From Catellatospora bangladeshensis (lineage in GTDB: Bacteria > Actinomycetota > Actinomycetes > Mycobacteriales > Micromonosporaceae): 64,000 nt of DNA. The notes under the pieces were generated by a model. It was not told the origin of the DNA and made no database searches. It saw nothing but the letters and a program-made list of their open reading frames with translations. Numbering within the stretch: position 1 is the first letter of the stretch; the number at the start of each line of letters is the position of its first letter. This document shows, one piece after another, positions 14,597 through 45,659 of this stretch. Both the position numbers and the translations under genes were made by a program. The stretch lies in contig NZ_BONF01000025.1 of assembly GCF_016862575.1 (NCBI RefSeq), positions 117,835 to 181,834 on the forward strand, given 5' to 3'.

Positions 14597-14756
14597 AGTG
14601 CTCAAGGTCAGCGTCCGGTCGTGGCGGACCGGCCGGAAACGACGATTCCGGTAACGAGCGGCGCGGGGGTACGCTCCCCATCACCAGATGCCCATGCATG
14701 GATGCGGCTGCCTTACCGGGCGGCGGCTTCCGTGTGCCGTGAACAGGGGAGACTGC

Positions 14757-17700
14757 ATGTCGGAGCGCATCCACGTCGCGTTCGAGCAACAGGCCGGGAC
14801 AGCACCGGACCGGGTGGCGGTGATCGCGGGGAGGGTGCGGACGTCATACGGCGACCTCGACGCGCGGGCCGATCGCGTCGCGGCCCGCCTGCGCCGTGCG
14901 GGTGCCGCACCTGGCTCGCTGGTCGGGGTGTGCGTGCCCCGCGACGAGCACCTGCTGCCGGCGCTGCTGGGCGTGCTGAAGAGCGGCGCGGCGTACGTGC
15001 CGCTCGACCCGGCGTACCCGGCCGAGCGGTTGGCCTTCATCGCCGCCGACACGAACATGTCCCTGGTCGTCACGACCCGCGCCACCCGGCACGCCGCCGC
15101 GAGCCTGGCCGCCACCGCGATCGACGTCGACGGCGAGCCGGACGGCGAGGTCGCGGACCGGCCTGCCGACACCGGCAGCCCGGCGGACGCGGCGTACGTC
15201 ATCTACACGTCCGGCTCCACCGGCCGCCCCAAAGGGGTCGTCGTGGAGCACCGGCAGACCATGAACCTGCTGCGCTGGGAGCAGTCGGCGTACCCCGCCG
15301 AGGAGCTGCGCGGCATGCTGGCCACCGCCTCGATCTGCTTCGACCCGTCGATCAGCCAGCTGTTCCTGCCACTGCTCGCGGGCGGCACGGTGATCCTCGC
15401 CGACAACGTGCTGGCGCTGCCGTCGCTGCCCGCCCGCGACGAGGTGACAACCGTGTACGGCGTGCCGTCCGCGCTGGCGGCGCTGCTGCGCGAACCGCTG
15501 CCGGACGGGGTGCGGGCGGTGTTCGCCGGCGGCGAGCCGCTGACCCGGGCGCTGGTCGACCGCATCTACGCCAACCCCGGCGTCCGCCGGGTGCGCAACC
15601 TCTACGGCCCGGCCGAGTGCACCACCACCTGCGCGATCGCCGACGTGGGCCGCGACGAGCCGGGCGAGCCGTCGCTCGGCCACCCGATCGCCGGCGCGGT
15701 GTTCACCGTGCGGGACGCGGCGGGCCGCCCGGTGCCCGACGGCGAGCTGGGCGAGCTGTGGATCGGCGGCCCGGTGGTGGCGCGCGGTTACCTCGGGCGG
15801 GAGTCGGACGCGTTCGCCGCCGAGCCGGACGGCACGCGTGTCTACCGCTCGGGCGACCTGGTCCGCCGTGACGGCGACGTGCTGCGTTTCGCGGGCCGGG
15901 CCGACGACCAGGTCAAGGTCCGCGGTTACCGGGTGGAGCCGGGCGAGGTCGAGGCCGTGCTGGTACGCCATCCCGCGGTGCGCCGGGCCTGCGTGGTCGC
16001 CCGGTCCGACGCGGACGGCGCCGCGTACCTGGTCGGGCACGTCGAGGCGGACGGGCTGGACGAGCGTGCGCTGCGCGGCTGGCTGGCGGAGCGGGTGCCC
16101 GAACACCTGGTGCCGACCCGGTTCCGGGTGACCGGGCGGCTGCCGCTCAATCCGAACGGCAAGATCGACAAGGCGGCGCTGCCGGAGGTGGCCGCCCGCC
16201 GGGACATCGCGGTGCCGTATGTCGCGCCGCGCACCCCCGCCGAGGCGAGGGTCGCCGAGCTGGCCGGTGAGGTGCTCGCCCTGCCGCCGGTCGGCGTGCT
16301 GGACCGCTTCGGCGATCTGGGCGGGCACTCGCTCACCGCCGCCCGGCTGTGCGCGCTGGCCGGGCGCGAGTTCGGCGTCACGGTGCCGCTGGCCGCCTTC
16401 CTCGCCGAACCCACTGCCGCCGCGCTGGCCGCCCTGGTCACCGTGGGCGCGGGTGGCGCCGGAGGCACGGACGGCCAGGCGAACCCTGGTGGCCTGGCAG
16501 GCACGGGCGCGTTCGCAGGGAAGGCCGGGACTTCCGGAACGGCCGGGCCACGGTCCGGCGCGGCCGCGCTCGCACCCGTCGGTACCGCTGAGCACCCGGT
16601 GCGGCGCACCGGCATGAACCGTTACCCGCTCACCCCGACCCAGCGGGAGCTGTGGACGCTGCGGCAGGTCAGCGGTGTGCCGCAGGTGACCACGGTCGCG
16701 TTCCGGGTCCGGCTGACCGGGCCGGTCTCCGCGGACGGGCTGCGCCGGGCGCTGGACGCGCTGGCCGGGCAGCACGAGGTGCTGCGCAGCCGGGTGGTGG
16801 AGCGGGACGGCGAGCCGGTCGCGGTCGTGGGCGGGTACGCCGGCGTCCCGGTCACCGAGCACGACCTGCGCGAGCTGCCCCGGGCGCAGCGCGACCAGCG
16901 CGCCGCCGAGATCGCGGACGAGGCGACCCGGCACGCGTTCGACCTGGCCGCGCCGGTGCCGCTGCTGCGCGCGGACCTGATCCGGCACACCGCCGAGACG
17001 GCTGAGCTGGTGCTGGTCAGCGACCACCTGGCCTGCGACGGGTGGTCGGTAGGCGTGCTGCTCACCGGCCTGGCCGCCGAGCTGGCCGCGCCGGGTTCGG
17101 CCGCCGGGCCCGCGGTGCAGGTCGGCGACCTCGCCCTGCGCGCCGGAGCGCAGGCCGGTCAGGCGGCGGCGCAGTGGGCGCAGGAGCTGGCCGGGGCCTC
17201 CCCGCCGGGCGACCTGTTCACCGGGCAGGGCGGGTTCCGGGGCGGGCGGCTGACCCGCGCCCTGCCGCAGCCGCTGGTCACCGGTCTCGCCGAGCTGGCC
17301 GCGAGCTGCGGCACGAGCCCGTTCACGGCGTACCTCACCGGCCTGGGCCTGCTGCTGACCGGGCTCACCGCCCGTGCGGACGTGCTGGTGGGCGCGGTCG
17401 CGGCCCGGCGTGCCGAGCCGGAGCTGGACCGGGTGGTCGGCCCGCTGGTCGACGTGCTGCCGGTGCGGCTGCGGCTGGACGGCGACGCGAGCCTGCGCGA
17501 CGCGCTGGTCATGGCCGCGGCGACCACGGCCCGCGCGCTGGACCTGCCCCGGCCGTCCACGGAGGACCTGTTCGAGGCGATCGGCACCCAGCCACGCGGC
17601 GCGATGCTCACCCCGGTGGTGCTGTCGGCGCAGCCGTCCGGGATGCCGGTGCGCGCCCTGGCCGGGGCGGTGACGCTGGAGCTGCTGGGCGAGCTGGGCT

Positions 17701-19691
17701 GCGGCGGGGCGCAGAGTCCGCTGACGGTGTACGTCAACGAGACCGTGGACGGCACCGAGCTGCAGTTCGGGTACGACCTCGGCCTGCTCGACGCTGCCGC
17801 CGCGGACGCGTTCGCCGACCGGCTGCTGCTGGTGCTCGGCGGGCTGGCCGGCGACCCGGACCGGCCGCTGTCGCAGCTGCCGCTGGTCGGCGACGCCGAG
17901 CGGGAGCAGCTGCTGCGCCGTGCCGCCGGACCGGCCCTGGACGCACCGCCGACGGTGGTCGACGCGATCGAGCGCCAGGTCGCGGCGCGGCCGGACGAGA
18001 TGGCCGTCGCCGGGGCGGCGGGGCAGCTGACGTTTCGGGAGCTGTGGGACCTGTCGACCGAGGTCGCCGGGGTGCTGCGCGGCGCCGGCACCGGCCGGGG
18101 CGACGTGGTGGGCGTCTGCCTGCCCCGTGACCACCGGCTGCCCTCGACGCTGCTGGGGGTGTGGCGCGCGGGCGCGGCGTACCTGCCGCTGGAGCCGGAG
18201 CTGCCCGCCGAGCGGCTGGCGTGGCTGGCCGCCGACGGCGGCGCGCGGATCGTGCTGTGCCGCAAGTCCACCGCGGAAGCGGCGGCGGCCGTGGCCGGGA
18301 CACGGGCGCTCGACCTGGACACCGCTCCCCCGGCCGAGCAGGTGGAGCTGGAGCCGGTGCTCGGCGCGGACCTGACCTACCTGCTGTACACGTCCGGCTC
18401 GACCGGCACCCCGAAGGGTGTCGCGGTGGCGCAGTCGGGGCTGGCGGCGCTGGCCGCCTCGCTCGGCCGCGAGCCGGGCATCGGCCCCGGCGACCGGATG
18501 CTGGCGGTGGCGACGCTCAGCTTCGACACCTCGTGCGCGGAGATCTGGTCCACCCTGTCGGCGGGCGCGTGCTGCGTGGTCGTCGAGCGTGACGCGGCCG
18601 TGGACGGGCACCGGCTGGCCGAGCGCATCGGCGCGCACAGGATCACGGTGATGAACGTGCCGCCGACGATGCTGCGTACGCTGCTGGCCGCATGCTGGGC
18701 CGGGGCTCCGGGCCTGCGCATCTGGAGCGGCGGCGAGACCCTCGACCCGGCCCTGGCCCGGGACCTGCTCGGCCGGGTCGGCGAGCTGTGGAACGTGTAC
18801 GGCCCCACCGAGGCGACCGTACTGTCGGCGGCGTTCCGGGTGCACGCGGTGGACGAGACCGTCCCGATCGGGCACGCGATGCCCGGCGAGCGGCTCTACG
18901 TGATGGACCCGCTGGGCCGCCTCGCCCCGCCGGGCGCGGCCGGTGAGCTGTGGATCGGCGGCGCGGGACCGGCGCTGGGCTACCACCGCCGCCCGGAGCT
19001 GACCGCGGCCGCGTTCGTGCCGGACCCGTACGTGCCGGGTGGGCGCTGCTACCGCACCGGCGACCTGGTGCGCCTGCGCGCCGACGGCGAGCTGGCGTTC
19101 TGCGGCCGCCGCGACCACCAGCTGAAGATCCGCGGCTACCGGGTGGAGCTGGGCGAGATCGAGTCGGCGCTGCGGGACCATCCGCTGGTCGCGCACGCGG
19201 TCGTGGTCGCGCACGGCCAGGGGGCCGAGGCGCACCTGGTCGGCTACCTGGTGGGCCGGTCGGCGATCACGGGCGAGGAGGCCGCCGCGCACCTGCGCGC
19301 CCGGCTGCCCGAGTATCTGGTGCCGCACCGCTGGGTGGTGCTGGACGCGTTCCCGGTCATGCCCAGCGGAAAGGTGGACCTGGCCGCGTTGCCACGGCCG
19401 GGAGCCGACCGGCCGCACACACCGCCCGGGTCGGTGATGGAGCAGCTCGTCGCGGAGATCTGGGCGCAGACGCTGAGCGCCGAGCGGATCGGCGCGTTGG
19501 ACAGCTTCTTCGGCCTGGGCGGCCACTCGCTGGCCGCAACGCGGGTGGCGGGGCGGCTGCGGGACACGCTCGGCTGTGCCGTGCCGGTGCGCCTGCTGTT
19601 CGACCATCCGGTGCTGTCGGAGTTCGCCCGGCAGCTGGAGAACCTTGTCATCGCCGAGATCGCGGCCGAGTCCGGCCTCCGGGGGAACTGA
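14757..19691 (+). CDS. Nonribosomal peptide synthetase, A-T-C-A-T (initiation and second module)
   Basis: A 1644-residue synthetase. The first adenylation domain (about 1-485) has YTSGSTGRPKG at 150-160, YGPAE at 283-287 and the PNGKIDK lysine loop near 466-472. The first carrier domain has its phosphopantetheine serine at S525 (LGGHSLT). A Gly/Ala-rich linker (565-615) follows. The condensation domain (about 620-1050) has DHLACDG at 756-762, where the second His of HHxxxDG is kept and the first is Asp. A second adenylation domain (about 1080-1530) has YTSGSTGTPKG and YGPTE, and a second carrier domain has S1591. There is no leading condensation domain, so this protein starts the chain. Core A4 of domain 1 (CFDPSISQLF) is unusual, so I do not predict its substrate. 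The ATG at 14757 follows GGGGAGA. The next gene starts 1 nt after the stop. Confidence 0.95.
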   Translation: MSERIHVAFEQQAGTAPDRVAVIAGRVRTSYGDLDARADRVAARLRRAGAAPGSLVGVCVPRDEHLLPALLGVLKSGAAYVPLDPAYPAERLAFIAADTNMSLVVTTRATRHAAASLAATAIDVDGEPDGEVADRPADTGSPADAAYVIYTSGSTGRPKGVVVEHRQTMNLLRWEQSAYPAEELRGMLATASICFDPSISQLFLPLLAGGTVILADNVLALPSLPARDEVTTVYGVPSALAALLREPLPDGVRAVFAGGEPLTRALVDRIYANPGVRRVRNLYGPAECTTTCAIADVGRDEPGEPSLGHPIAGAVFTVRDAAGRPVPDGELGELWIGGPVVARGYLGRESDAFAAEPDGTRVYRSGDLVRRDGDVLRFAGRADDQVKVRGYRVEPGEVEAVLVRHPAVRRACVVARSDADGAAYLVGHVEADGLDERALRGWLAERVPEHLVPTRFRVTGRLPLNPNGKIDKAALPEVAARRDIAVPYVAPRTPAEARVAELAGEVLALPPVGVLDRFGDLGGHSLTAARLCALAGREFGVTVPLAAFLAEPTAAALAALVTVGAGGAGGTDGQANPGGLAGTGAFAGKAGTSGTAGPRSGAAALAPVGTAEHPVRRTGMNRYPLTPTQRELWTLRQVSGVPQVTTVAFRVRLTGPVSADGLRRALDALAGQHEVLRSRVVERDGEPVAVVGGYAGVPVTEHDLRELPRAQRDQRAAEIADEATRHAFDLAAPVPLLRADLIRHTAETAELVLVSDHLACDGWSVGVLLTGLAAELAAPGSAAGPAVQVGDLALRAGAQAGQAAAQWAQELAGASPPGDLFTGQGGFRGGRLTRALPQPLVTGLAELAASCGTSPFTAYLTGLGLLLTGLTARADVLVGAVAARRAEPELDRVVGPLVDVLPVRLRLDGDASLRDALVMAAATTARALDLPRPSTEDLFEAIGTQPRGAMLTPVVLSAQPSGMPVRALAGAVTLELLGELGCGGAQSPLTVYVNETVDGTELQFGYDLGLLDAAAADAFADRLLLVLGGLAGDPDRPLSQLPLVGDAEREQLLRRAAGPALDAPPTVVDAIERQVAARPDEMAVAGAAGQLTFRELWDLSTEVAGVLRGAGTGRGDVVGVCLPRDHRLPSTLLGVWRAGAAYLPLEPELPAERLAWLAADGGARIVLCRKSTAEAAAAVAGTRALDLDTAPPAEQVELEPVLGADLTYLLYTSGSTGTPKGVAVAQSGLAALAASLGREPGIGPGDRMLAVATLSFDTSCAEIWSTLSAGACCVVVERDAAVDGHRLAERIGAHRITVMNVPPTMLRTLLAACWAGAPGLRIWSGGETLDPALARDLLGRVGELWNVYGPTEATVLSAAFRVHAVDETVPIGHAMPGERLYVMDPLGRLAPPGAAGELWIGGAGPALGYHRRPELTAAAFVPDPYVPGGRCYRTGDLVRLRADGELAFCGRRDHQLKIRGYRVELGEIESALRDHPLVAHAVVVAHGQGAEAHLVGYLVGRSAITGEEAAAHLRARLPEYLVPHRWVVLDAFPVMPSGKVDLAALPRPGADRPHTPPGSVMEQLVAEIWAQTLSAERIGALDSFFGLGGHSLAATRVAGRLRDTLGCAVPVRLLFDHPVLSEFARQLENLVIAEIAAESGLRGN

Positions 19692-19692
19692 T

Positions 19693-22600
19693 ATGACCAT
19701 GACCGACGACACCCTGCGCGCCCTGATGGAGAAGCGGGTGGCCGCGGCGCAGGCCGCCGCCCGCACCACGCCCGGCACCACGATCCCGGCCCGCCGCGAT
19801 CCGCATGCCCCGCAGCCGCTGTCGGCGGCGCAGCGGCGGCTGTGGTTCAACAGCCAGTTCGAGCACGACCCGGCTATCTACCACGTGCCGCTGGTGCTGC
19901 GCCTGTCCGGGCCGCTGGACGGCGACGCGCTGCTCGGAGCGTTGCGCGAGGTCGTGCAGCGGCACGAGGTGCTGCGCAGCGTCATCGCGCACCACGGCGA
20001 CGAGCCCGTGGCCGTGGCCGGGCCTGCCGGCCGGGTGAGCCTGACCCGCGCGGAGGTCACCGCCGCCGCGCTGGACGCCGCGATCGCCGCCGAGGTCGCC
20101 CGGCCGTTCCGGCTGGACGCGGAGCCGCCGCTGCGGGCGCTGCTGCTGCGGCTGTCCGAGCAGGAGCACGTGCTGGTGCTGACGGCGCACCACATCGCCA
20201 CCGACGCCTGGTCCCAAGACCTGATCATGGACGAGCTGGCGGCGGGGTATGCCGCCGCGCGCGGGCAGGGTGCTCCCCCGGCTCCGGTGCGGCTGCAGTA
20301 CGCCGACGTAACCGAGTGGGCGCGGGACCGCCCCGGCGGCGATGCAGGGTGGTGGGCCGAACGTCTGGCCGGGCTCGACCCGGTGCTGGCCCTGCCGACG
20401 GACCGGCCCTACCCGCCGGTCGCCGAGTGGCGCGCGGGCTACGTGCCGCTCACGCTGCCGCCGGAGCTGTCCCGGCGGGTGCGGGAGGCCGCCCGCGAGG
20501 CCGGGGCCACCCCGTTCATGGTGCTGCTGGCCGCCTGGCAGGCGCTGCTGGGCCGGCTGTGCCGCACCGCCGACGTGCCGGTCGGCGTACCCGAGTCGGG
20601 GCGGCGGCACCGCGACACCGAGGGCGTCGTCGGCTGCTTCATCAACACCCTGGTCCTGCGCACCGACCTGTCCGGCGACCCGACCGGCCGCGAGCTGCTG
20701 GCCCGGGTGCGCGAGACCACCCTGGACGCGTTCGCCCACGCCGACGTGCCGTTCGAGCACGTGGTGGAGGCCGTCGCGCCGCAGCGCAGCACCGCCACCA
20801 CGCCGCTGTTCCAGTCGATGCTGCTCCTGCTGGACGAGCCGCTGCGCGACCCGGCGCTGCCCGGCGCCGCGGTGACCCGGCTGGACTCGCCGCTGGACAC
20901 CAACAAGTTCGACCTGTGCCTGTCGCTGACCGGCGGCCCGGACGGCTACACCGGCTTCGTCAGCCACCGGGCGGACCTGCTGGACCGGGCCACCGTGACC
21001 CGGTGGGCGCGCTGGTTCACCCGCCTGCTCGACGGCCTGCTGTCCGCCCCGGACCGTCGGGTGTCCGAGCTGGACCTGCTCGACCCGGCCGAGCGGGCCG
21101 AGCTGATCGCCTGGGGCACCGGCCCCGAGCTGCCCGCCGGGACGCCCGCCACCGTGCTGGAGGCGGTGCTGGCGCAGGCGGCGGCCCGGCCCGACGCGGT
21201 CGCGGTGGACGCCCGCGACGGCAAGCTCAGCTACGGCGAGCTGGCCCGTGACTCGGCGGCCGTCGCGGCGGCGCTGCTGGCGCACGGGGTCGGGCGGGGC
21301 ACGCCGGTCGGGCTCTGCCTGCGCCGGCACCGGCACCTGCCCGCCGCGCTGGTGGGGGTGATGCGCGCCGGTGCGGCGTACCTGCCGCTGGAGCCGGACC
21401 AGCCGGTGGCCCGGCTGCGGCACCAGCTCACCGACGCGGGCGCGGGCGTGGTGCTGGCCGCGGCCGACACCTGGGAGCTGGCGCGGGAGCTGGCCGAGGG
21501 CACCGGCGCGGTGCTGCTGGACCTCGCCGACGCGTTGTCGGCCGAGCCCGCCGCGCTGCCCGAGGTCGGCGCTGGCGATCTCGTGTACGTGCTCTACACG
21601 TCCGGTTCGACCGGGCGGCCCAAGGGCGTGGAGCTGACCCACGGCAACCTCGCCGCGTACGTCGCCGCCAACTGCGAGCTGCTCCCGGTCACCCCCGATG
21701 ACGTGATGCTCGGGCTGACCGCGCTGTCGTTCGACGTGGCCGGGCTGGAGCTGTGGGTGGCGCTGACCCGGGGGCTGCGGCTGGCGCTGGTGGAGCGGTG
21801 CGACGCCGTGGACGGTCACCTGGTGGCGCGGCGGATCGCCGAGGCCGGGGTGACGGTGCTGACGGCGACGCCGACGACGTTCCGGATGCTGGTCGCGGCG
21901 GACTGGCGGGCCCCGGACGTGCGGCTGGTCGCCATCGGCGAGGCCGTCGACCCGGGCCTGGCCCGCGAGCTGCTGGCCCGCACCGGCGAGGTGTGGAACG
22001 GCTACGGCCCTACCGAGACCGCGGTGACCTCGACGATGTACCGCGTGACGGCCCCGGTCGGCCCGACCGTGCCGATCGGCACGCCGATGGCCGGGGAACG
22101 GGTGTACGTGATGGACGCGGCCGGCCGCCTGGCCCTGCCGGGCACGGTCGGCGAGCTGTGGATCGGCGGGGCCGGGGTGGCGCGCGGCTACCGGGGGCGG
22201 CCCGATCTGACCGGGGCGGCGTTCACCGCCGATCCGCTGCGCCCGGACGAGCGCTGCTACCGCACCGGTGATCTGGTGCGCTGGCGCGCCGACGGGCTGC
22301 TCGACTTCGTCGGCCGCGACGACGGGCAGGTGAAGGTGCGCGGGCACCGCATCGAGCTGGGCGAGATCGAGGCGCAGCTGCGGGCGGTGCCGGGCGTGGC
22401 GCAGGCGGCCGTGACGGTCACCGCCGCGGGTGGGGACGCGCACCTGGTCGGGTACCTGGTGGCGGGGCCGGGGGCGGCCGTGTCCGCGGCGGAGCTGGAG
22501 ATGCGGCTGCACGCGGTGCTGCCCGATCACATGGTGCCGCGCCGCTGGGCGCTGCTGGACGCGCTGCCGGTCAACGCCTCCGGCAAGCTGGACCGCCGGG

Positions 22601-22887
22601 CGCTGCCCGAACCGCAGCAGGCGGCGCGTGAGCACGTGCCGCCGCGCACCGAGGCCGAGGAGCTGGTGGCCGACGTGTGGGGCGCGGTGCTGCGCCGCGA
22701 CGGCCTGTCGGTGCACGACGACTTCTTCGCCCTGGGCGGGCACTCGCTGGCGGCGACGCTGGTGGCCGGGCGGCTGCGCGAGGCGCTGGACCTGCCGGTG
22801 CCGGTGCGGCTGCTGTTCGAGCAGCCGGTGCTGGCCGGGTTCGCGGCCGCGCTGGAGGCGCTGCTGCTGGCGGAGGTGGTCCGGTGA
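19693..22887 (+). CDS. Nonribosomal peptide synthetase, C-A-T (third module)
   Basis: A 1064-residue single-module synthetase. The condensation domain (about 38-480) carries HHIATDA at 166-172, with Ala in place of the usual final Gly. The adenylation domain (about 495-975) shows LYTSGSTGRPKG, LSFDVAGLELW, YGPTETAV, CYRTGDLVRWR and NASGKLDR. The carrier domain has S1018 in LGGHSLAAT. No epimerase or methyltransferase is inserted. The A4 motif FDVAGLELW belongs to a widespread actinomycete A-domain type whose substrate I cannot name with confidence. The ATG at 19693 follows GGGGGAAC, and an alternative ATG lies 6 nt later. It overlaps the next gene by 4 nt, giving a strictly collinear operon. 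Confidence 0.95.
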   Translation: MTMTDDTLRALMEKRVAAAQAAARTTPGTTIPARRDPHAPQPLSAAQRRLWFNSQFEHDPAIYHVPLVLRLSGPLDGDALLGALREVVQRHEVLRSVIAHHGDEPVAVAGPAGRVSLTRAEVTAAALDAAIAAEVARPFRLDAEPPLRALLLRLSEQEHVLVLTAHHIATDAWSQDLIMDELAAGYAAARGQGAPPAPVRLQYADVTEWARDRPGGDAGWWAERLAGLDPVLALPTDRPYPPVAEWRAGYVPLTLPPELSRRVREAAREAGATPFMVLLAAWQALLGRLCRTADVPVGVPESGRRHRDTEGVVGCFINTLVLRTDLSGDPTGRELLARVRETTLDAFAHADVPFEHVVEAVAPQRSTATTPLFQSMLLLLDEPLRDPALPGAAVTRLDSPLDTNKFDLCLSLTGGPDGYTGFVSHRADLLDRATVTRWARWFTRLLDGLLSAPDRRVSELDLLDPAERAELIAWGTGPELPAGTPATVLEAVLAQAAARPDAVAVDARDGKLSYGELARDSAAVAAALLAHGVGRGTPVGLCLRRHRHLPAALVGVMRAGAAYLPLEPDQPVARLRHQLTDAGAGVVLAAADTWELARELAEGTGAVLLDLADALSAEPAALPEVGAGDLVYVLYTSGSTGRPKGVELTHGNLAAYVAANCELLPVTPDDVMLGLTALSFDVAGLELWVALTRGLRLALVERCDAVDGHLVARRIAEAGVTVLTATPTTFRMLVAADWRAPDVRLVAIGEAVDPGLARELLARTGEVWNGYGPTETAVTSTMYRVTAPVGPTVPIGTPMAGERVYVMDAAGRLALPGTVGELWIGGAGVARGYRGRPDLTGAAFTADPLRPDERCYRTGDLVRWRADGLLDFVGRDDGQVKVRGHRIELGEIEAQLRAVPGVAQAAVTVTAAGGDAHLVGYLVAGPGAAVSAAELEMRLHAVLPDHMVPRRWALLDALPVNASGKLDRRALPEPQQAAREHVPPRTEAEELVADVWGAVLRRDGLSVHDDFFALGGHSLAATLVAGRLREALDLPVPVRLLFEQPVLAGFAAALEALLLAEVVR

Positions 22888-25800
22888 CGGTCACCGACAC
22901 CCAGCGCAGCCTGCTGAAGTCGCGCCTGGCCCAGGCCCGGCGCACGGTCGCGGCCCCGGCGGGCATCCCCGCCGGTGACCCGGACCAGCCCGCGCCGCTG
23001 TCGCGGGCGCAGGCGCGGCTGTGGTTCCTGCACCAGCTGGAGCCGGACAGCCCCGCCTACCACGTGCCCGCGGCGGTGCGGCTGCGCGGCCCGCTGGACA
23101 CCGAGGCGCTGACCGCGGCGGTACGCGAACTCGCCGCCCGGCACCACGTGCTGCGTACGACCTTCGCCGACCACGACGGCGAGCCGCTGGCGGTGCTCGG
23201 CGACGCGGACCGGGTGCCGGTCGCGGTCGTCGACGCCGACCCGGCCCGGCTGACCGAGCTGCTGCTGGCCTGCCGGGACCGGCTGTTCCGGCTGGACCGG
23301 GAGCCGCCGCTGCGGGCCGAGATCTTCCGCCTGGCCCCCGACGAGCATGTGCTGCTGCTGGTCGTGCACCACATCGCCTGCGACGCGTGGTCGCTGGACC
23401 TGATGCTGGGCGAGCTGGGCGAGCTCTACGCCGCCCGGGTCACCGGCGGCCCCGCACCGGCCGCGCCGCCGCTGCAGTACGCCGACTTCGCCCGCTGGCA
23501 GGCGACCCGCCCCGCGCCGGAGTCCGACCTGGACTGGTGGGCCGGGCAGCTGTCCGGTCTGGAGCCGGTGCTGGACCTGCCGGTGGACCGGCCCAGGCCC
23601 GCACTCGCCGACTGGTCGGCCGGGCAGATCCCGGTGGAGCTGCCCGCCGCGCTCGCCGAACGGATCGGCGCGCTGGCCGCGGCGAGTGCGGCGACGCCGT
23701 TCATGGTGCTGCTGGCGGCGTGGCAGGCGACGCTGGCCCGGGTGTGCGGCACCGACGACGTCGCCGTGGGGGTGCCGCACGCGGGCCGCCACCATCCCGG
23801 CGTGGAGCGGATGGTCGGCTGCTTCATCGGCACGCTGGTGCTGCGCGGCGACCTGTCCGGCGACCCGACCGGCCGTGAGCTGCTGATCCGGGTACGCGAG
23901 CGGGCGCTGGACGCGTTCGGGCATGCCGAGACGCCGTTCGAGCGCATCGTGGACCGGCTCCAGCCGGAGCGCAACCTGGCCACCACACCGATCTTCCAGG
24001 TGCTGCTGAACGTGCTGGACACCCCGGCCACGCCGCCGAGCCTGCCCGGCGCGGCCGAGCTGGAGCTGCCGATCCGCACCACCAAGTACGACCTGAACCT
24101 GGCGCTGTCCAGGACGGACGGCGGCTACCGGGGCGGCCTGCTCTACCGCGCCGACCTGTTCGACGAGGTCACCGCCCGGCGGCTGGCCGGCTGGTTCCGC
24201 ACGCTGCTGGACGGGCTGGCCGCCGACCCGGACCGGCCGGTCGGCGAGCTGCCGCTGGAGGCGGACCCGGCGGGCGGCCCGGACGGCCCGGAGGCCGGGT
24301 ACGCCCTGGACCGGCCGCTGCACGAGCTGATCACGCAGCACGCGGTCACCAGCCCGCACGCCGTGGCGGTGGTCGCCGCCGACGGGACGCTGGACTACGC
24401 CGAGCTGGACCGGCGCGCCTCGGTCGTCGCCGGGCGGCTGCTGGCGGCCGGGATGCGGCCGGAGGAGCCGGTCGCGGTGCTCACCGAACGCGGCGTCAGC
24501 CTGCCGGTCGCGATGCTGGGCGTGCTCCGGGCGGGCGGCGTTTACCTGCCCGTGGACCCGGGCTACCCCGACGGGCGGCTGTCGGGCATCCTCGACACGG
24601 CCGGGGTCCGGTTCGTGCTGACCGAGGCCGAGCACGCCGGGCGGGTCCCGGGCCGCGAGGCCCTGGTGGTCGCCGGGCTGACCGGGGAACCCGCCGCGCC
24701 CGTGCCGGTGTCCCCGGACCGGCTCGCCTACCTGATCTTCACGTCGGGCTCGACCGGGCAGCCCAAGGGCGTCACCGTCGAGCACCGGCACATCACCCAC
24801 TACCTGCACGCGGTCCGGGACCGGATCGGGCGGCCGGGCTCGTACGCCCTGGTGTCCACGCACGCCGCCGACCTCGGCCTGACGAACCTGCTCGGCGCGC
24901 TCACCACGGGCGCGACGGCGTACCTGGTGGACCGGGAGACCGCCACCGACCCGGGCGCGTTCGCGGCGTACCTGGCCGCGCACCCGGTCGACGCGGTCAA
25001 GATGGTGCCCAGCCACCTGGAGCTGCTGGCCGCGCACGGCGACCTCGCCGCGCTGCTCCCGCGGCGGCTGCTGGTCCTGGCCGGCGAGCCGGTCCCGTGG
25101 GAGCTGGTGGAGCGGGTCGAGCGGGCCCGGCCGGACCTGGACGTCCAGGTCCACTACGGACCGACGGAGACCACGGTCTCGGTGCTGGGCTGCCGCACCG
25201 CCGACATCCCGGCTGCTCAGCGGCACGGCATCGTGCCTATCGGGCTGCCGTTCGCGAACGTGCGCTGCCGGGTGACCGACCCGGCCGGGCGCGAGGTGCC
25301 CGCCGGGGTGCCCGGCGAGCTGCGCCTGGGCGGGCCGAGCGTGGCGCGCGGCTACCTGGGCCTGGCCGACGGCCGCTTCGACGGCGGCTGGTACCGCTCC
25401 GGCGACCGGGTGCGGGTGAACGCGGCCGGGCTGGTCGAGATCCTGGGCCGGGTCGACGACCAGGTGAAGATCCGCGGCTTCCGGGTGGAGCTCACCGAGG
25501 TCGCCACCGCCCTGCGGGAGGTGGCCGGGGTCGGCGAGGCCGTGGTGCTGCCGGTCGGGCAGGCGCACACCCGGCGGCTGGCCGCCTGGATCACGCCCGA
25601 GAGTGCCGATCCGGTGCTCGTCCGCGCCGCGCTGCGCGACCGGCTGCCCGACTACATGGTCCCGGCCGCGATCACGCCGCTGGCGGCGCTGCCGCTGACC
25701 GCCAACGGCAAGGTGGACCGGGCCGCGCTGCCCGAGCCCGCCCCGCCCGCGGCTGCCAACGGGGTGCCGCCGTCGACCCCGATGGAGCAGCGGGTCGCGG

Positions 25801-28160
25801 CCGCCTGGGCGCAGGTGCTGGAGTGCGGCGAGTTCGGTGTGGACGACGACTTCTTCGCCCTGGGCGGGGACTCGTTCAAGGCCGTACGGGCGGTGCGCGC
25901 CATCGACCCGCAGCTGCGCGTCATCGACCTGTTCACCCGGCCCACCGTGCGTGAGCTGGCGGCGCACCTGGACGGCGGCGCCCGCCCCGGCGGGCTGCTG
26001 CACCGGCTGGCCGGTCCGGCCACGGCCGCGCTGACCGTGGTGTGCGTGCCGTACGGTGGTGGCTCGGCGGCCGCGTACGGTCCCTTCGCGACCGAATTGG
26101 CGCAACGTATGCCGGACACGGCCGTGCTGGCCGTCGAGCTGCCCGGTCACGACCCGGCCCGCCCGGACGAGCCGCAGCTCCCGCTGCCGGAGCTGATCGA
26201 CCGCATCGCCGCCGAACTGCCCGCAGGTCCCGTGCTCGTCTACGGGCACTGCGTCGGCTCGGCCGCGGCCACCGAGCTGGCACTACGGCTGGAGGCGGAC
26301 GGCCGCGAGGTCGCCGGGCTGGTCGTCGGCGGCAGCTTCCCCGCGGCCCGGCTGCCCGGGCGCCTGTCGGCCTGGCTGCACCGGCGCTTCCCGGCGACCT
26401 GGTGGACGTCGGACCGGGCGTACCGGGACTTCCTGCGTTCGCTGGGCGGCCTGGACGACGACGAAGGCCTCGACGCGGACGTGATCCTGCGCGGCCTGCG
26501 CCACGACGTGGACCAGGCGCAGTCCTGGTTCACGCGCGAGCTGACCCGGCCCGACCGGCGGCGGCTGCGGGCCCCGGTGCTGTGCGCCATCGGCGCCCGC
26601 GACCGCTCCACCGAACTCTACGAGGAGCGCTACGCCGAGTGGGGCGCCTTCGCCGACCGGGTCGAGCTGGCCGTGGTGCCCCGCGCGGGCCACTACTTCC
26701 TCAAGCACCAGGCGTCGTGGCTGGCCGAACGGGTCGCCGCCGCGGTCGCGGGCTGGCGCGCGGGCAGCCTGCCGCCGCCGGCCGCGGACTCGGTGACCGG
26801 CGGCGCGGCCCGCCGTGACCTGCGCGAGTTCTACCTGATGGCGGCCGGTCAGTCGATCTCGCTGATCGGGGCGGCGCTCAGCTCGTTCGCGCTGGGCGTG
26901 TGGGCGTATCAGCGAAGCGGCCGGGTGGCCGACTACGCGCTGGTCACCATGCTGGCGCTGCTGCCCGCGATCCTGCTGCTGCCGCTGGGCGGCGCGGTCG
27001 CCGACCGGGTGGACCGGCGGCGCGTCATGCTGGCCTGCAACGGGATGGGCGCGCTGATCATGTCCACGATGGTCGCGCTGCTGGCCGTGGACCGGCTCAG
27101 CATCGCCGGGGTCGGGGTGCTGGTCGGGCTGCTGTCGGCGGTGACCGCGTTCCACCGGCCGGCATACCTGGCGGCGGTGGCGCAGCTGGTGCCCAAGCCG
27201 TATCTGGGTCAGGCCAACGCGCTGGCGAATCTGGGGCCCGGCATCGGCCAGCTGATCGCCCCGCTGGCCGGTGGGGCGCTGATCACGGCGCTGGGCCTGC
27301 CCGGGGTCGTGGTGGTGGACGTGCTGTCGCTGCTGGCCGGGTTCGCCACGCTGCTCGCGGTGCGGCTGCCGGACCGGCTGTTCCGGCGGCAGGAGGAGAC
27401 GTTCACCAGGGCGATCGCGGGCGGCTGGCGCTTCCTGGTCCGGCGGCGGCCGTTCCTGATCATGATCGGGTTCTTCGTGGTGGAGAACTACCTGGCCATG
27501 CTCGCCCTCGCGGTCACCGTGCCCACGGTGTACGCCTTCAGCGACGCCACCGGCGTCAGCGTCGTCACCGCCTGCAGCGGCCTCGGCGCGGGACTCGGCG
27601 CGCTGGCGATGGTGTTGTGGGGCGGCTCGCAGCGCCGCGCCCTCGGCATGGTCGGCTTCGTCTCCGGTGTCGGCCTCGGCGCGCTGCTGGTGGGCCTGCG
27701 CCCGTCGCTGGCGGTGGCGGCCGCAGGCAGCCTCGTCTGGTACGCGTCGCTGACCGTCCTCAACGCCCACTGGCTGGCCCTGATCCAGGTCAAGGTCGGC
27801 CTCGACCTGCAGGGCCGGGTCCTGGCCACCAACCAGATGCTCGCCGTCGCCATGACCCCGCTGGCGTTCCTCACCGCACCGCCACTGGCCGAAGCGGTCC
27901 AGCCACTGCTGATGCCGGGCGGGGCGCTCGCCACGACGGTCGGGCGGGTGGTCGGCGTGGGTGACGGCCGCGGCAACGCCCTCATCCTGATCGCCTGCGG
28001 GCTGGCCCTGGCGATCTGGGGCCTGCTCGGCCTGGCCTACCGGCCGCTGCGCCGGATGGAGGACGACCTGCCCGACGCCGTGACCGGTGCGGAGATCGCC
28101 GACAGCCTCGACGAGGTCCAGGCCGCCGCCGACCGCCTGGCGACCGCGAGCGCCCGCTGA
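22884..28160 (+). CDS. Nonribosomal peptide synthetase C-A-T-TE fused to MFS transporter
   Basis: A 1758-residue terminal synthetase. The condensation domain (38-470) has HHIACDA at 162-168. The adenylation domain (475-960) has FTSGSTGQPKG and YGPTETTV, but its A4 region reads THAADLGLTNLL, without the usual FD. The carrier domain serine is S997 (LGGDSFK). A type I thioesterase (about 1030-1300) has GHCVGS with nucleophile Cys1123 instead of Ser, plus D1240 and H1270. From residue 1314 to about 1735 there is a complete MFS_3-type transporter with about ten to twelve helices, including the GGAVADRVDRRRVM loop. It should release the tetrapeptide and may also export it. The GTG at 22884 overlaps the previous stop as GTGA and follows GGAGGTGG. 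Codon use is continuous across the TE-MFS junction, and I see no frameshift. Confidence 0.93.
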   Translation: MTVTDTQRSLLKSRLAQARRTVAAPAGIPAGDPDQPAPLSRAQARLWFLHQLEPDSPAYHVPAAVRLRGPLDTEALTAAVRELAARHHVLRTTFADHDGEPLAVLGDADRVPVAVVDADPARLTELLLACRDRLFRLDREPPLRAEIFRLAPDEHVLLLVVHHIACDAWSLDLMLGELGELYAARVTGGPAPAAPPLQYADFARWQATRPAPESDLDWWAGQLSGLEPVLDLPVDRPRPALADWSAGQIPVELPAALAERIGALAAASAATPFMVLLAAWQATLARVCGTDDVAVGVPHAGRHHPGVERMVGCFIGTLVLRGDLSGDPTGRELLIRVRERALDAFGHAETPFERIVDRLQPERNLATTPIFQVLLNVLDTPATPPSLPGAAELELPIRTTKYDLNLALSRTDGGYRGGLLYRADLFDEVTARRLAGWFRTLLDGLAADPDRPVGELPLEADPAGGPDGPEAGYALDRPLHELITQHAVTSPHAVAVVAADGTLDYAELDRRASVVAGRLLAAGMRPEEPVAVLTERGVSLPVAMLGVLRAGGVYLPVDPGYPDGRLSGILDTAGVRFVLTEAEHAGRVPGREALVVAGLTGEPAAPVPVSPDRLAYLIFTSGSTGQPKGVTVEHRHITHYLHAVRDRIGRPGSYALVSTHAADLGLTNLLGALTTGATAYLVDRETATDPGAFAAYLAAHPVDAVKMVPSHLELLAAHGDLAALLPRRLLVLAGEPVPWELVERVERARPDLDVQVHYGPTETTVSVLGCRTADIPAAQRHGIVPIGLPFANVRCRVTDPAGREVPAGVPGELRLGGPSVARGYLGLADGRFDGGWYRSGDRVRVNAAGLVEILGRVDDQVKIRGFRVELTEVATALREVAGVGEAVVLPVGQAHTRRLAAWITPESADPVLVRAALRDRLPDYMVPAAITPLAALPLTANGKVDRAALPEPAPPAAANGVPPSTPMEQRVAAAWAQVLECGEFGVDDDFFALGGDSFKAVRAVRAIDPQLRVIDLFTRPTVRELAAHLDGGARPGGLLHRLAGPATAALTVVCVPYGGGSAAAYGPFATELAQRMPDTAVLAVELPGHDPARPDEPQLPLPELIDRIAAELPAGPVLVYGHCVGSAAATELALRLEADGREVAGLVVGGSFPAARLPGRLSAWLHRRFPATWWTSDRAYRDFLRSLGGLDDDEGLDADVILRGLRHDVDQAQSWFTRELTRPDRRRLRAPVLCAIGARDRSTELYEERYAEWGAFADRVELAVVPRAGHYFLKHQASWLAERVAAAVAGWRAGSLPPPAADSVTGGAARRDLREFYLMAAGQSISLIGAALSSFALGVWAYQRSGRVADYALVTMLALLPAILLLPLGGAVADRVDRRRVMLACNGMGALIMSTMVALLAVDRLSIAGVGVLVGLLSAVTAFHRPAYLAAVAQLVPKPYLGQANALANLGPGIGQLIAPLAGGALITALGLPGVVVVDVLSLLAGFATLLAVRLPDRLFRRQEETFTRAIAGGWRFLVRRRPFLIMIGFFVVENYLAMLALAVTVPTVYAFSDATGVSVVTACSGLGAGLGALAMVLWGGSQRRALGMVGFVSGVGLGALLVGLRPSLAVAAAGSLVWYASLTVLNAHWLALIQVKVGLDLQGRVLATNQMLAVAMTPLAFLTAPPLAEAVQPLLMPGGALATTVGRVVGVGDGRGNALILIACGLALAIWGLLGLAYRPLRRMEDDLPDAVTGAEIADSLDEVQAAADRLATASAR

Positions 28161-28234: not shown

Positions 28235-28834
28235 TCACGCCGGGTAGGGGGACGCTTCGCGAGCTGCCCGGAGCGCGCCCGACCACCAGGCGAGCTGGTC
28301 GAGCATGGTCTTGGCGTACCCGGCGGGCTCGTCGGACAGCGGGCGCCCGTCCCGCCAAGCGGTGAAGTAGTTCGGGAAGGCCAGCCCGTCGCGGATGGTG
28401 ACCGCGTGCAGTTCGCTGAACACGTTCTCCAGGTGCAGCACCGCGTGCCGGCCCCCGGCCCCGCCGCCGTAGCTGACGAACGCCACCGGCTTGGCCGCCC
28501 ACTGGGTGAAGTGCCAGTCGATGGCGGCCTTCAGCGCGGCCGGGTAGCTGTGGTTGTACTCCGGGGTCACCACGATGAACCCGTCGGCGGCCTCCAGCGC
28601 CGCGGTCAGGGCGGCCATCCCGGCCGGGCGCGGGTAGTCGGCACCGGCCAGCTTCGGCGGCATCGCGGGTAGCGCCAGCGGCAGCTCCACCTCCGCGAGG
28701 TCGACGACCTCCACCTCGAAGCCGCCGTGTGATCGGGCCTGCTCGGCGACCCATGATGCGACGACGGGCCCGAACCGGCCCTCCCGGACGCTTCCGACGA
28801 TGACGGCCAGCCTGTGCTTGCTCTCGTTTTCCAT
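28235..28834 (-). CDS. NADPH-dependent FMN reductase family protein
   Basis: A 199-residue flavodoxin-fold oxidoreductase. The phosphate-binding loop GSVREGRFGPVV lies at about 14-25, and the flavin-contacting TPEYNHSYPAALKAAIDW motif at about 89-106 is typical of this family. These enzymes reduce FMN, quinones or azo compounds with NAD(P)H in the cytoplasm. The ATG at 28834 was chosen over a longer upstream frame because the family N-terminus (KHRLAVIVGS) follows directly. It is divergent from an XRE regulator 102 nt away, a frequent arrangement in which the regulator controls the reductase. It converges on the NRPS operon. Confidence 0.88.
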   Translation of the reverse strand: MENESKHRLAVIVGSVREGRFGPVVASWVAEQARSHGGFEVEVVDLAEVELPLALPAMPPKLAGADYPRPAGMAALTAALEAADGFIVVTPEYNHSYPAALKAAIDWHFTQWAAKPVAFVSYGGGAGGRHAVLHLENVFSELHAVTIRDGLAFPNYFTAWRDGRPLSDEPAGYAKTMLDQLAWWSGALRAAREASPYPA

Positions 28835-28923
28835 GAGCACCACCCTGCGCGCCCGCCGCGGCCGCAACCAGACCGCGCTCAGGCTGGCCCCAGCAGGGCC
28901 AGGCTGTGCCCGCCGCCCCGCCA

Positions 28924-28936
28924 TAGACTTCCCCGC
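28924..28936 (+). promoter_or_regulatory. -10 box for a probably leaderless regulator mRNA
   Basis: TAGACT at 28924-28929 is followed 7 nt later by the GTG start at 28937. No Shine-Dalgarno site is present. This spacing puts the expected transcription start at or next to the start codon. Confidence 0.45.
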
Positions 28937-33204: not shown

Positions 33205-33708
33205 TCAGTGTGCGAGGCGGGTGTACGCCCCCATGTGGTACAGCAGCGGCTCGCCGGGCCGGTGCTCGGCGCTGACCGGGCGTCCGATCACGACGATGTG
33301 GTCGCCGACGGGGATGCGCTCGACGATCTCGCAGGTCAGCGTGGCGAGGACGCCGTGCAGCAGCGGCACGCCGTAGGGGCCCTGCCGCCAGGTGCGGGTG
33401 TCGGCGAAGCGGTCGGCGCCGCGGGTGGCGAACGTGCGCGCGAGCTGCTCCTGCTCGGCGGCGAGCACGTGCACGGCGACGTGGCGCGCCCGCTCGACGG
33501 CCGGGCCGCTGCTGGCGTCCCGGTCGATGCAGAACGAGACGAGCTGCGGCCGCAGCGACACCGAGGTGAAGGTGGTCGCAGTGAACCCGGCGGGGCCGGG
33601 GGCGGTGACCACCGTGACGCTGGTGGCGTGGTGGCGCAGCGTGCCGAGGTAGTGGTGCAGCTCGATGCCGGTGACGGCGGACGCCGCGGGCTGGGCGGTG
33701 AGCGTCAT
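33205..33708 (-). CDS. Flavin reductase-like domain protein
   Basis: A 167-residue FMN-binding split-barrel protein. Conserved elements are a TVVTAPGPAGFTATTFTSVS segment (the FMN site), LRPQLVSFCIDRDASSGP, an RFADTRTW helix and a C-terminal GDHIVVIGRPVSAEHRPGEPLLY with a terminal YTRLAH. These enzymes supply reduced flavin to two-component monooxygenases. An alkanesulfonate monooxygenase-like gene lies about 4 kb away and would need such a partner, but they are not in one operon. The ATG follows GAGAGG. A palindrome lies upstream. Confidence 0.87.
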   Translation of the reverse strand: MTLTAQPAASAVTGIELHHYLGTLRHHATSVTVVTAPGPAGFTATTFTSVSLRPQLVSFCIDRDASSGPAVERARHVAVHVLAAEQEQLARTFATRGADRFADTRTWRQGPYGVPLLHGVLATLTCEIVERIPVGDHIVVIGRPVSAEHRPGEPLLYHMGAYTRLAH

Positions 33709-33832: not shown

Positions 33833-35785
33833 TCACTGGTGGCTGGACCAGGTCGCGAACATGCCCGCGTAGCGGCCCTCCGCGGCCAGCAGCTCGGTGT
33901 GCGATCCGATCTCGACGATGCCGGTCTCGTCGAGCACCACGATCCGGTCCGCGCGCATCGCGGTGGACAGCCGGTGCGCGATCAGCAGCGCGGTCCGCCC
34001 CTCCAGCAGCTGGTCCAGTGCCTGCTCGACCCGCAGCTCCGAGCGCAGGTCCAGGTTGGACGTGGCCTCGTCGAGCACCACGACGCGGGGCCGGGCCAGG
34101 AACGCCCGTGCCAGCGCCAGCAGCTGCCGCTGGCCCGACGACACGGACTGGCCGCGCTCGTGCAGCGGCGCGTCGAGCCCCGCCGGGGTGCGCTCGACCA
34201 GCTCACGCAGCCCCACCGCGTCGACGGCCGCCCAGATCTCCGCGTCGTCGGCGTCCGGCCGGGCGAAGGCGATGTTGTCGCGGATCGACCCGGCGAACAT
34301 GAACGGCTCCTGGGGCACCACCCCGATCTGGCGGCGCAGCGACGTCAGGCTCACCTCCCGCAGGTCGTAGCCGTCGATGAGGACCCGACCGGAGTCCGGG
34401 TCGTGCAGCCGGGTGACGAGCTTGGCCAGCGTCGATTTGCCCGCCCCGGTCGGCCCCACGCACGCGATGGTCTCCCCCGGCTCGATACGCAGGGTGATGT
34501 CGCGCAGCACCGGCCGGGCCGGGTCGTAGCCGAACGTGACGTGCTCGAACGTGATCCCGCCCGCGACCGGCGGCAGGGTGAGCGGATCGGCGCGCTCGGG
34601 CACCGCGGGCGCGAGCGCCAGCAGCCCGCGCAGCTTGCTCACCGCCGCGCGGCTCTGCTGGTAGTTGGTGTAGAGCTGCACCAGCTGCTGCACCGGGGCG
34701 AAGAACGCGTTGAGGTACAGCACGAACGCCGTCAGCACGCCCACGGTCAGCTCCCCGCGCAGCACTATGTGCCCGCCCACCAGCAGCAGCGCGGCCATGC
34801 CGAGCATGCCGATGACCGAGGTGCCCGGCCCGTAGATCGCGCTGATGTGGCCGGTGAAGTCGTTGGCGTCGCGGTAGCGGCCGACGACGGTGCGGTGCTG
34901 GGCGATGTTGCGGTCCTGGCGGTGGTACGCGGTGACCACGCGGACGCCGTGCAGGCTCTCGGCGAGGTCGGTGAACATGGCCGCGATGGTGTCGCGCTGG
35001 CGGGCGTAGCCGACGTCGGAGGCGCGCCGGAACCACAGCGACGCGGCGAACAGCGCGGGCACGACCAGCAGCAGCGTGATCGCGGCCAGCCCGGCGTCGT
35101 AGTGGATCAGCACGGCGGTGACCACGACCATGGTCAGGCCCTGCACCGCGAACTGGGCCAGGCCCTCCTGGAGCAGCTGCTGCAGCGACTCCACGTCCGA
35201 CGACATCCGGGTCATGATGACGCCGGCCTTCTCGTTGGTGTAGTAGTCCATGGACAGCCGCTGCAGGTGGGTGAAGACGCGGACCCGCAGGTCGCGCATG
35301 CCGTCGGCGGCCAGGCGGCCGGTCTGGCGCATGCGCGCGGTGGTGGCCGCCCAGCCCGCGAGCACGGCCGCCACGAACGCCCCCGCCGACCACAGCAGCA
35401 CCGGCAGGTCGCGGGCGACGATGCCGTGGTCGATGCCGACCTGCACCAGGTACGGCCCCGCCTGCAGCAGCAGGGTCTCGGCCAGCACCGTGGCGCACGC
35501 GGCGGCGAACAGCCCGCGGCGGCGGGTGAGCAGCCCGAGCATGCTCAGCTGCGGCTCGCCGCCGGGCCCGTGGCCGAAGCGGTCGGGCGGGGTGCCGTGG
35601 TCGGGTTCGCTGTCCTCCAGCCGCCGTACACCCGCCGCCAGCTCGTCCGGGATGCCCGCGAACGGCAACCCTGTGGCGCCGTCGCGGCGCGCGCCCCGCC
35701 CCGCGCCCACGGCCGACAGCCCGCCCATCGGCCCCGACCCGGGACCGCCGCCCGGCCCGCCGAACCCGCCGCCGAACATGCTCAT
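33833..35785 (-). CDS. ABC exporter half-transporter, canonical Walker B partner
   Basis: A 650-residue half-transporter with a glycine-rich N-terminal tail (about 1-35), six transmembrane helices (about 85-390) and an ATPase domain. Walker A is GPTGAGKST at 444-452, the signature is degenerate (VSSGQRQ, about 548-554), and Walker B VVVLDEATS (about 568-576) keeps the catalytic glutamate. The H-loop is LLIAHRLST. It probably pairs with the product of the upstream gene, which overlaps it by 4 nt (ATGA). The pair should export a drug, lipid or peptide. Confidence 0.9.
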   Translation of the reverse strand: MSMFGGGFGGPGGGPGSGPMGGLSAVGAGRGARRDGATGLPFAGIPDELAAGVRRLEDSEPDHGTPPDRFGHGPGGEPQLSMLGLLTRRRGLFAAACATVLAETLLLQAGPYLVQVGIDHGIVARDLPVLLWSAGAFVAAVLAGWAATTARMRQTGRLAADGMRDLRVRVFTHLQRLSMDYYTNEKAGVIMTRMSSDVESLQQLLQEGLAQFAVQGLTMVVVTAVLIHYDAGLAAITLLLVVPALFAASLWFRRASDVGYARQRDTIAAMFTDLAESLHGVRVVTAYHRQDRNIAQHRTVVGRYRDANDFTGHISAIYGPGTSVIGMLGMAALLLVGGHIVLRGELTVGVLTAFVLYLNAFFAPVQQLVQLYTNYQQSRAAVSKLRGLLALAPAVPERADPLTLPPVAGGITFEHVTFGYDPARPVLRDITLRIEPGETIACVGPTGAGKSTLAKLVTRLHDPDSGRVLIDGYDLREVSLTSLRRQIGVVPQEPFMFAGSIRDNIAFARPDADDAEIWAAVDAVGLRELVERTPAGLDAPLHERGQSVSSGQRQLLALARAFLARPRVVVLDEATSNLDLRSELRVEQALDQLLEGRTALLIAHRLSTAMRADRIVVLDETGIVEIGSHTELLAAEGRYAGMFATWSSHQ

Positions 35786-37596: not shown

Positions 37597-37818
37597 CACA
37601 CTCCAGGGATGAGCGGATGGACGGGCGGACATCCACGATGGCACGCCGCCCGGCCCGCGGTAACCGTAGCGGCTGTTCAGTCACGAAGTAGCCCCCTCGG
37701 CGCACTTTTTCTTTAATTCCCATAGGCTTAATATGAAATAGTCGCTCGATGGATTGTGGCGGGCCGGACGGCCGTGCCAGCATCCGAAGCAGCAACCCCC
37801 AGCAGCGGAGACAGCCCG

Positions 37819-45609: not shown

Positions 45610-45659
45610 CCGCTACCAGTACCCGTCCGAGCTGCGGCTACACGGCCGGGGCGGGGTGA

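What the first reader, a model, noticed from the sequence alone, without database searches (positions are those of the whole stretch)
26823..28160. Exporter fused to the last NRPS protein
The third synthetase continues past its thioesterase into a full MFS transporter (from about residue 1314) without a stop codon. No separate exporter gene lies in the operon. A peptide released at the thioesterase would be next to its exporter. Some actinomycetes carry annotated NRPS/MFS fusions, to my recollection, but this type is uncommon. The fusion could couple release and export, or self-resistance.
Basis: partly seen in the sequence, partly recalled or inferred. Interest (0 to 1): 0.72.

Follow-up and report, generated by a model that had tools for sequence, protein, structure and literature searches.

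The report
Peptide ring-closer welded to its exporter
The last protein of a small bacterial peptide assembly line continues without a stop into a membrane protein of the pump type with 12 predicted helices, and its release domain is of the rare cysteine type whose two studied relatives close strained four-membered rings, so the enzyme would likely make a reactive peptide and hand it straight to its own exporter.

Summary
The fusion is real: GTG 22884 to stop 28160, 1758 aa, C-A-T-TE-MFS, open through the junction and repeated in many actinobacteria; NCBI already names such proteins "non-ribosomal peptide synthetase/MFS transporter". It is neither rare nor a frameshift. Its nucleophile is Cys, with the displaced catalytic Asp of the obafluorin (ObiF1, beta-lactone) and sulfazecin (SulM, beta-lactam) thioesterases, and ObiF1 is its closest solved relative. 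Cys holds in 52 of 53 fusion loci and in 111 of 120 listed homologues. The module before these thioesterases reads Asp, Ser, Thr, Cys or Dab by its code in 42 of 44 readable fusions, against 0 of 28 Ser-thioesterase synthetases from related genomes. All five side chains could attack the activated carbonyl. The operons are 1-3 genes with almost no shared neighbours. Most likely reading: a self-contained "close a reactive ring and eject it" unit. Shown: architecture, Cys triad, residue bias. Inferred: ring chemistry, transport, hand-off. The window's own last residue reads Asp, so its exact ring is the open point.

The parts
14688..19691 (+). First synthetase, A-T-C-A-T, 1667 aa
19693..22887 (+). 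Second synthetase, C-A-T, 1064 aa; starts one base after the stop of the first
22884..28160 (+). Third synthetase, C-A-T-TE-MFS, 1758 aa; its GTG overlaps the stop of the second gene
22992..24254 (+). Condensation domain
   Evidence: Pfam PF00668
24336..25712 (+). Adenylation domain; nine-letter code DLTKVAHVS, Asp-like
25788..25970 (+). Carrier (T) domain
   Evidence: Pfam PF00550
25986..26753 (+). Cys-type thioesterase, ObiF1-like
26250..26252 (+). Nucleophile Cys1123 in GHCVGS (ObiF1 Cys1146)
26601..26603 (+). Catalytic Asp at position II (ObiF1 Asp1254)
26691..26693 (+). Catalytic His (ObiF1 His1284)
26754..26822 (+). Linker between thioesterase and first membrane helix
26823..28037 (+). 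MFS domain, 12 predicted membrane helices; GGAVADR (MFS motif A, recalled name) at 26988
28038..28157 (+). Tail after the last membrane helix, holding two nearly invariant residues (P696, D697 of the alignment's first row)

Best explanation
The third synthetase is one continuous C-A-T-TE-MFS protein whose cysteine-type thioesterase is predicted to release the peptide by closing the last residue's side chain onto the activated carbonyl, and whose fused MFS domain, with 12 predicted helices, would likely pump that product out. Three closely packed genes with four adenylation domains would make a tetrapeptide. The chain would pass from the last carrier domain to Cys1123 of the thioesterase as a thioester. 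In ObiF1 the beta-hydroxyl then attacks that thioester to give a beta-lactone, and in SulM a beta-sulfamate gives a beta-lactam. In this family the last residue, by A-domain code, is Ser, Thr, Cys, Dab or (here) Asp, so the same step would give a beta-lactone, beta-thiolactone or gamma-lactam. For Asp it would be a cyclic anhydride, or a beta-lactone if the Asp is hydroxylated in trans. Such products are reactive, and a pump tethered about 25 residues away would remove them from the cell as they form. Shown: architecture, triad, residue bias, small operons without conserved neighbours. Inferred: ring closure, transport, direct hand-off.
Against: The window's own code reads Asp, which has no beta-hydroxyl. 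No Pfam hydroxylase was seen among the ten genes annotated around the operon; a flavin reductase (33205-33708) and a luciferase-like monooxygenase (37756-38973) lie 5-11 kb downstream but recur only in the near-identical G007. 9 of 120 homologues have Ser as nucleophile with Asp-like codes; PMC6668435 reports mainly hydrolysis for the ObiF1 Cys-to-Ser variant. [quoted passage not shown] Two fused genes have unassigned codes (DMPQVGLVW, DTEDIGTVI), and a DMPQV code also precedes one Ser-type control (L196). Two unfused Cys thioesterases (L134, L136) follow an unassigned code. ObiF1 Arg1190, important there, aligns with Thr here by my count in a gapped stretch. The residue classes were chosen after seeing the data, and the genes are related. 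I know of no product, transport assay or ring for any member.
Confidence: 0.45

Rival explanations
1. The Cys thioesterase simply hydrolyses or macrocyclises the tetrapeptide, and the MFS exports an ordinary linear or cyclic product; the fusion is a convenience that keeps synthetase and pump together.
For: The window's last residue reads Asp, which needs no strained ring; a tetrapeptide could cyclise head to tail; nine homologues have a Ser nucleophile; no product is known.
Against: A Cys nucleophile with displaced Asp is described for the two ring-closers ObiF1 and SulM among NRPS thioesterases; the bias of last residues to Asp, Ser, Thr, Cys and Dab is not expected for hydrolysis or head-to-tail closure.
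Confidence: 0.3
2. The thioesterase works like EntF: it joins several copies of the unit through the side chain of the last residue into an oligolactone or similar, for example a siderophore, which the MFS exports.
For: A side-chain nucleophile is needed here too; one unfused relative (L133) has the code DVWHFSLVD; the last module matches the NCBIfam EntF model, though far below its cut-off (306 against 2400 bits); MFS_3 is the Pfam family in which I recall the enterobactin exporter EntS.
Against: EntF uses Ser and has its Asp on the earlier strand; Asp, the commonest code here, cannot form such an ester; no siderophore uptake gene was seen among the annotated neighbours.
Confidence: 0.1
3. 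The MFS part is mainly a membrane anchor or a self-resistance pump for product that comes back in, and does not receive the peptide from the thioesterase.
For: Covalent linkage alone does not show hand-off; no transport data exist.
Against: The pump is conserved about as well as the enzyme domains, keeps 12 helices and the GGAVADR motif; in G033 the same kind of thioesterase has a separate MFS gene beside it, which an anchor would not explain.
Confidence: 0.14
4. The fusion is a sequencing or assembly error joining two genes.
For: The window's genome is a draft of 115 contigs.
Against: The same open fusion occurs in the single-contig G007 genome and in all 120 listed homologues; codon pattern is continuous.
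Confidence: 0.01

Closest known systems
ObiF1, obafluorin synthetase (PDB 6n8e; PMC6668435, passages read)
   Different: Its described structure ends in an MbtH-like domain, not an MFS; its last residue is a beta-hydroxy aromatic amino acid, here the code reads Asp
SulM, sulfazecin synthetase TE (8w2c, 8w2d; PMC11298585, passages and section 10 read)
   Different: SulM has a Gln-Cys-Asn motif and acts on N-sulfonated Dap; here the motif is His-Cys-Val; no MFS is mentioned in the passages I read
Proteins named 'non-ribosomal peptide synthetase/MFS transporter' by NCBI
   Same: Same architecture, 54-100% identity over TE-MFS in the 120 listed homologues
   Different: The name records the fusion only; no study of function turned up in my searches
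Verticillium polyketide synthases tabulated as KS-AT-ACP-ACP-TE-MFS (PMC9495618, passages read)
   Same: An MFS domain tabulated after a terminal thioesterase
   Different: Fungal polyketide synthases, from gene prediction
Epsilon-poly-L-lysine synthetase Pls (recalled; search listing only)
   Same: An NRPS with membrane helices in one chain
   Different: Recalled as lacking an MFS exporter and a Cys thioesterase

Membership tests
ObiF1/SulM-type ring-closing Cys thioesterase | Cys nucleophile in a GxCxG elbow | tested here: met
   GHCVG at 26244-26258
ObiF1/SulM-type ring-closing Cys thioesterase | Catalytic Asp at position II and no Asp at position I | tested here: met
   Aligned with ObiF1 Asp1254 and Gly1173. 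Also usual in type II thioesterases, so not diagnostic alone
ObiF1/SulM-type ring-closing Cys thioesterase | ObiF1 as nearest solved relative by sequence and fold | tested here: met
ObiF1/SulM-type ring-closing Cys thioesterase | Last residue carries a beta nucleophile (OH or NH) | tested here: inconclusive
   Window code reads Asp; 22 of 44 readable relatives read Ser, Thr, Cys or Dab
ObiF1/SulM-type ring-closing Cys thioesterase | Forms a four-membered ring | not testable with these tools
   needs biochemistry
SulM-like beta-lactam thioesterase | Gln-Cys-Asn motif; sulfotransferase in the cluster | tested here: not met
   Motif is His-Cys-Val; no sulfotransferase domain among the annotated neighbours
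MFS exporter | MFS profile match and 12 membrane helices | tested here: met
H+ antiporter subfamily TIGR00900 | Curated score cut-off | tested here: not met
   147 bits against 319.6
MFS exporter | Transports the peptide | not testable with these tools
   needs a deletion or transport assay
NRPS termination module | C, A, T and TE domains in order | tested here: met

The most novel reading that the evidence does not exclude
This is one of a large, unrecognised class of actinobacterial assembly lines that carry a 'warhead and eject' unit: a Cys thioesterase closes the last side chain of a di- to tetrapeptide into a reactive ring (beta-lactone from Ser or Thr, beta-thiolactone from Cys, lactam from Dab, and for Asp a cyclic anhydride or a beta-lactone of hydroxy-Asp) and passes it directly into a covalently attached pump, so that a product too reactive to keep in the cell is never free in the cytosol. 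With export built in, one to three genes suffice and the cassette moves freely between genomes.
Probability: 0.3. Interest if true: 0.88.

Novelty: new variant of a known kind. Interest (0 to 1): 0.67.

Why it matters
Strained-ring peptides such as beta-lactones and beta-lactams are valuable and hard to find from sequence. If the pattern holds, a simple rule (Cys thioesterase fused to an MFS, plus the terminal A-domain code) would point to hundreds of unexplored small operons and predict the ring each makes. It would also be a direct case of an assembly line that releases product into its own exporter, testable by cutting one protein in two.

Tried and rejected
Frameshift or assembly error at the junction: rejected. 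Rare oddity: rejected. Ordinary Ser thioesterase: rejected. Sequence relatives of the MFS part among solved chains: none at E 1e-3; only the fold comparison gave relatives. Conserved tailoring, resistance or regulatory neighbours: no family other than the synthetases recurs in three or more of 23 loci (mostly the 10 kb downstream), and in nine relatives the only flanking family shared with the window beyond the near-identical G007 is a short-chain dehydrogenase, 16 kb away on the window side. My first motif search missed part of the distant fusions, because the elbow there is mostly GHCG[VPAI]G with one more residue. Literature: searches gave no study of NRPS-MFS fusions in the held open library; subscription journals are mostly not covered. 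The azaserine and kasichelin papers, checked in passages, list separate MFS genes; the obafluorin paper PMC5490192 returned no passage for my terms. Substrates of the window's first three modules (codes DPSYFGLTT, DTANWGVVL, DVLTVIGVT) could not be assigned.

Rows dropped. Controls: of 44 canonical thioesterase matches, 37 were examined (34 fetched, three already held) and seven with short open frames were not fetched; four more came (fetched). Of these 41, eleven had no recognised A domain just upstream, one (L209, motif FSWCGGSG, also Cys) had an unreadable code, one (L183) is a Cys type with a Thr code, leaving 28 Ser types. Fusions: G040b was unreadable; broken copies in G038, G091 and G004 were left out; G015 is cut by a contig end. 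G000 and G007, and L162 and L178, are the same genes in near-identical genomes. Internal modules of the same lines can also read Asp or Asn (L024, L127). In the six-genome survey (46 loci) thirteen loci gave no hit or no readable motif, and L068 and L102 re-read a neighbouring gene.

Full report
What is there. The operon has three genes on the + strand: A-T-C-A-T (14688-19691), C-A-T (19693-22887) and C-A-T-TE-MFS (22884-28160). The second begins one base after the stop of the first, and the start codon of the third overlaps the stop of the second, so translation is probably coupled. The third protein has 1758 residues and no stop or change of codon pattern across the TE-MFS junction. The genes on both sides run on the other strand, an amidase at 13587-14225 and an FMN reductase at 28235-28924, and no separate exporter lies in the operon.

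How common it is. A search with the TE-MFS part found 558 proteins at E 1e-3, of which the best 120 are listed; all 120 contain both domains, and those with a named host come from actinobacteria (Catellatospora, Dactylosporangium, Nonomuraea, Streptosporangium, Kitasatospora, Streptomyces and others). NCBI already calls many of them non-ribosomal peptide synthetase/MFS transporter. In 101 genomes (the window's own and 100 relatives), by my reading of the table, 28 have an intact fusion.

Conservation of the Cys. In 53 loci with the fusion (at least two pairs are the same gene from two collections), 52 have Cys, and all have Asp at position II, His, and Gly or Ala at position I; the exception is L053, GHGAG, with a stop in its match. 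Among the 120 listed proteins 111 have Cys and nine Ser. In six genomes 46 Pfam thioesterase loci were examined. All five that are fused to an MFS have Cys; two of these (L106, L107) were missed by the first pattern and read later. Of the 41 others, 26 rows read Ser (two of them re-reading a neighbour), one free-standing protein reads GHCFG (L084), one is unclear (L063), and 13 gave no hit or no motif.

The last residue. I read nine adenylation code positions by alignment to the window's last A domain. The window reads DLTKVAHVS. PMC12283262 gives DLTKVGHVGK for Asp and Asn, DVWHLSLVDK for Ser, DFWNIGMVHK in its Thr section, and DLYNLSLIWK and DLYNMSLIWK in its Cys section (passages); the Dab code is from recall. 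Of 45 fusion genes collected from the order, 44 are readable: 20 Asp or Asn, 16 Ser, two Thr, two Cys, two Dab and two unassigned. All 23 loci of the named genome collection, found by a search for close relatives, read Asp or Asn. In the homologue list 119 of 120 read Asp-like codes, and one truncated protein is unreadable. Of 28 synthetases with Ser thioesterases from related genomes, none reads any of these five; codes seen more than once are DILQLGLVW (Gly, three times), DALFLGLVV and DAYWWGGTF (twice each). Fisher p is 6e-18; after collapsing both sets it is 2e-12 at 70% identity (23 of 25 against 0 of 26) and 2e-6 at 60% (7 of 8 against 0 of 25). The classes were defined after looking, and related genes are not independent, but the thioesterase tree needs at least eight changes of the label, unassigned codes included. 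One canonical-type thioesterase that also has Cys (L183, GWCYGG) again follows a Thr module.

Covariation inside the thioesterase. In the second large clade the elbow is mostly GHCGxG. The form GHCGPG is found in ten of the twelve Asp rows there and in none of the 20 rows that read Ser, Thr or Cys; these Asp rows are one subclade with moderate support, so this is supportive rather than independent.

The exporter. TE and MFS distances are congruent over 47 sequences (Mantel r 0.96; the best of 1000 permutations is 0.20), and mean identity is 50% for both. Between the window and six relatives dN/dS of the MFS is 0.03 to 0.48, in most pairs between the thioesterase (0.08-0.36) and the C and A domains (0.14-0.76); I would not lean on the most distant pairs. 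Of 28 ObiF-type thioesterase genes at E 1e-20 in 61 genomes, 24 continue in frame into the MFS, one is broken, one is cut by a contig end, and two are unfused (G033, G066). The unfused G033 gene, with a Ser code, is followed 56 bases later by a separate MFS gene, only 26% identical to the window's, which looks like an unfused state of the same pair.

Self-contained cassettes. In nine relatives the operon is one to three NRPS genes (one of them, G068, cut by a contig end). The flanking genes are not shared with the window except in the near-identical G007, apart from one distant dehydrogenase. No neighbour family recurs in three or more of 23 further loci. G016 is a single gene of about 2460 aa, A-T-C-A-T-TE-MFS. 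The fusion therefore also guarantees that synthetase and exporter travel together.

Mechanism. The best account is release by side-chain attack on a Cys thioester followed by export through the attached pump. Shown here: the architecture, the triad, the bias of last residues, and conservation of the pump. Inferred: the ring, the transport and the hand-off. The weak point is the window's own Asp code. An unmodified Asp would give a cyclic anhydride; a hydroxylated one a beta-lactone (PMC12283262 notes that such codes can also serve beta-hydroxy-Asp and -Asn). No hydroxylase domain was seen among the ten genes around the operon; a flavin reductase and a luciferase-like monooxygenase lie 5-11 kb downstream, with no sign that they belong to it. 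Hydrolysis or macrocyclisation remains a serious rival. In the nine homologues with Ser, hydrolysis is the likelier outcome, by analogy with the ObiF1 Cys-to-Ser variant.

Verdict. The fusion itself is a named, widespread architecture; its link to ObiF1-like ring-closing chemistry and to nucleophilic last residues was not found in print in my searches and is directly testable.

Noticed in passing
L183 (G080:C74:115600-119200): A canonical-type NRPS thioesterase, not fused to an MFS, has a Cys nucleophile (GWCYGG) behind a Thr module: a candidate beta-lactone producer of separate origin.
   Followed up: partly
L133:811-7390 (G033:C20): Cys-thioesterase synthetase with a Ser code, followed 56 bases later by a separate MFS gene, possibly the unfused arrangement of the same pair.
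   Followed up: partly
window 28038-28157: The tail after the last membrane helix (RPLRRMEDDLPDA) is conserved in the fusion family; its role is unknown and it could dock on the thioesterase.
   Followed up: no
window 4837-6420 (-): A protein with an N-terminal FeeM/GNAT-like domain and a weak (below cut-off) class V aminotransferase match, an unusual combination.
   Followed up: no
window 33833-37644 (-): Two adjacent ABC half-transporters, followed by a luciferase-like monooxygenase on the other strand and a flavin reductase on the far side.
   Followed up: no
window 44635-52544: Carbamoyltransferase, a glycosyltransferase, an HAD/heptosyltransferase fusion and a separate MFS_3: looks like a second biosynthetic or sugar island.
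   Followed up: no
P0097, P0100, P0103, P0104, P0105, P0106, P0117 and two others of P0001-P0120: Fusions in which the thioesterase Cys is Ser while the terminal code stays Asp-like (DFTKxAHMV).
   Followed up: partly
P0134, P0135, P0139, P0150, P0156: TE-MFS proteins listed without C, A and T domains (673-781 aa); some may be fragments, others free-standing release-and-export units.
   Followed up: no
L134 and L136 (G066, G052): Unfused Cys thioesterases behind a DIWQSTADD module; the code resembles DVWQMIGDDK, reported in PMC12283262 for a beta-hydroxylated Dab (passage).
   Followed up: no
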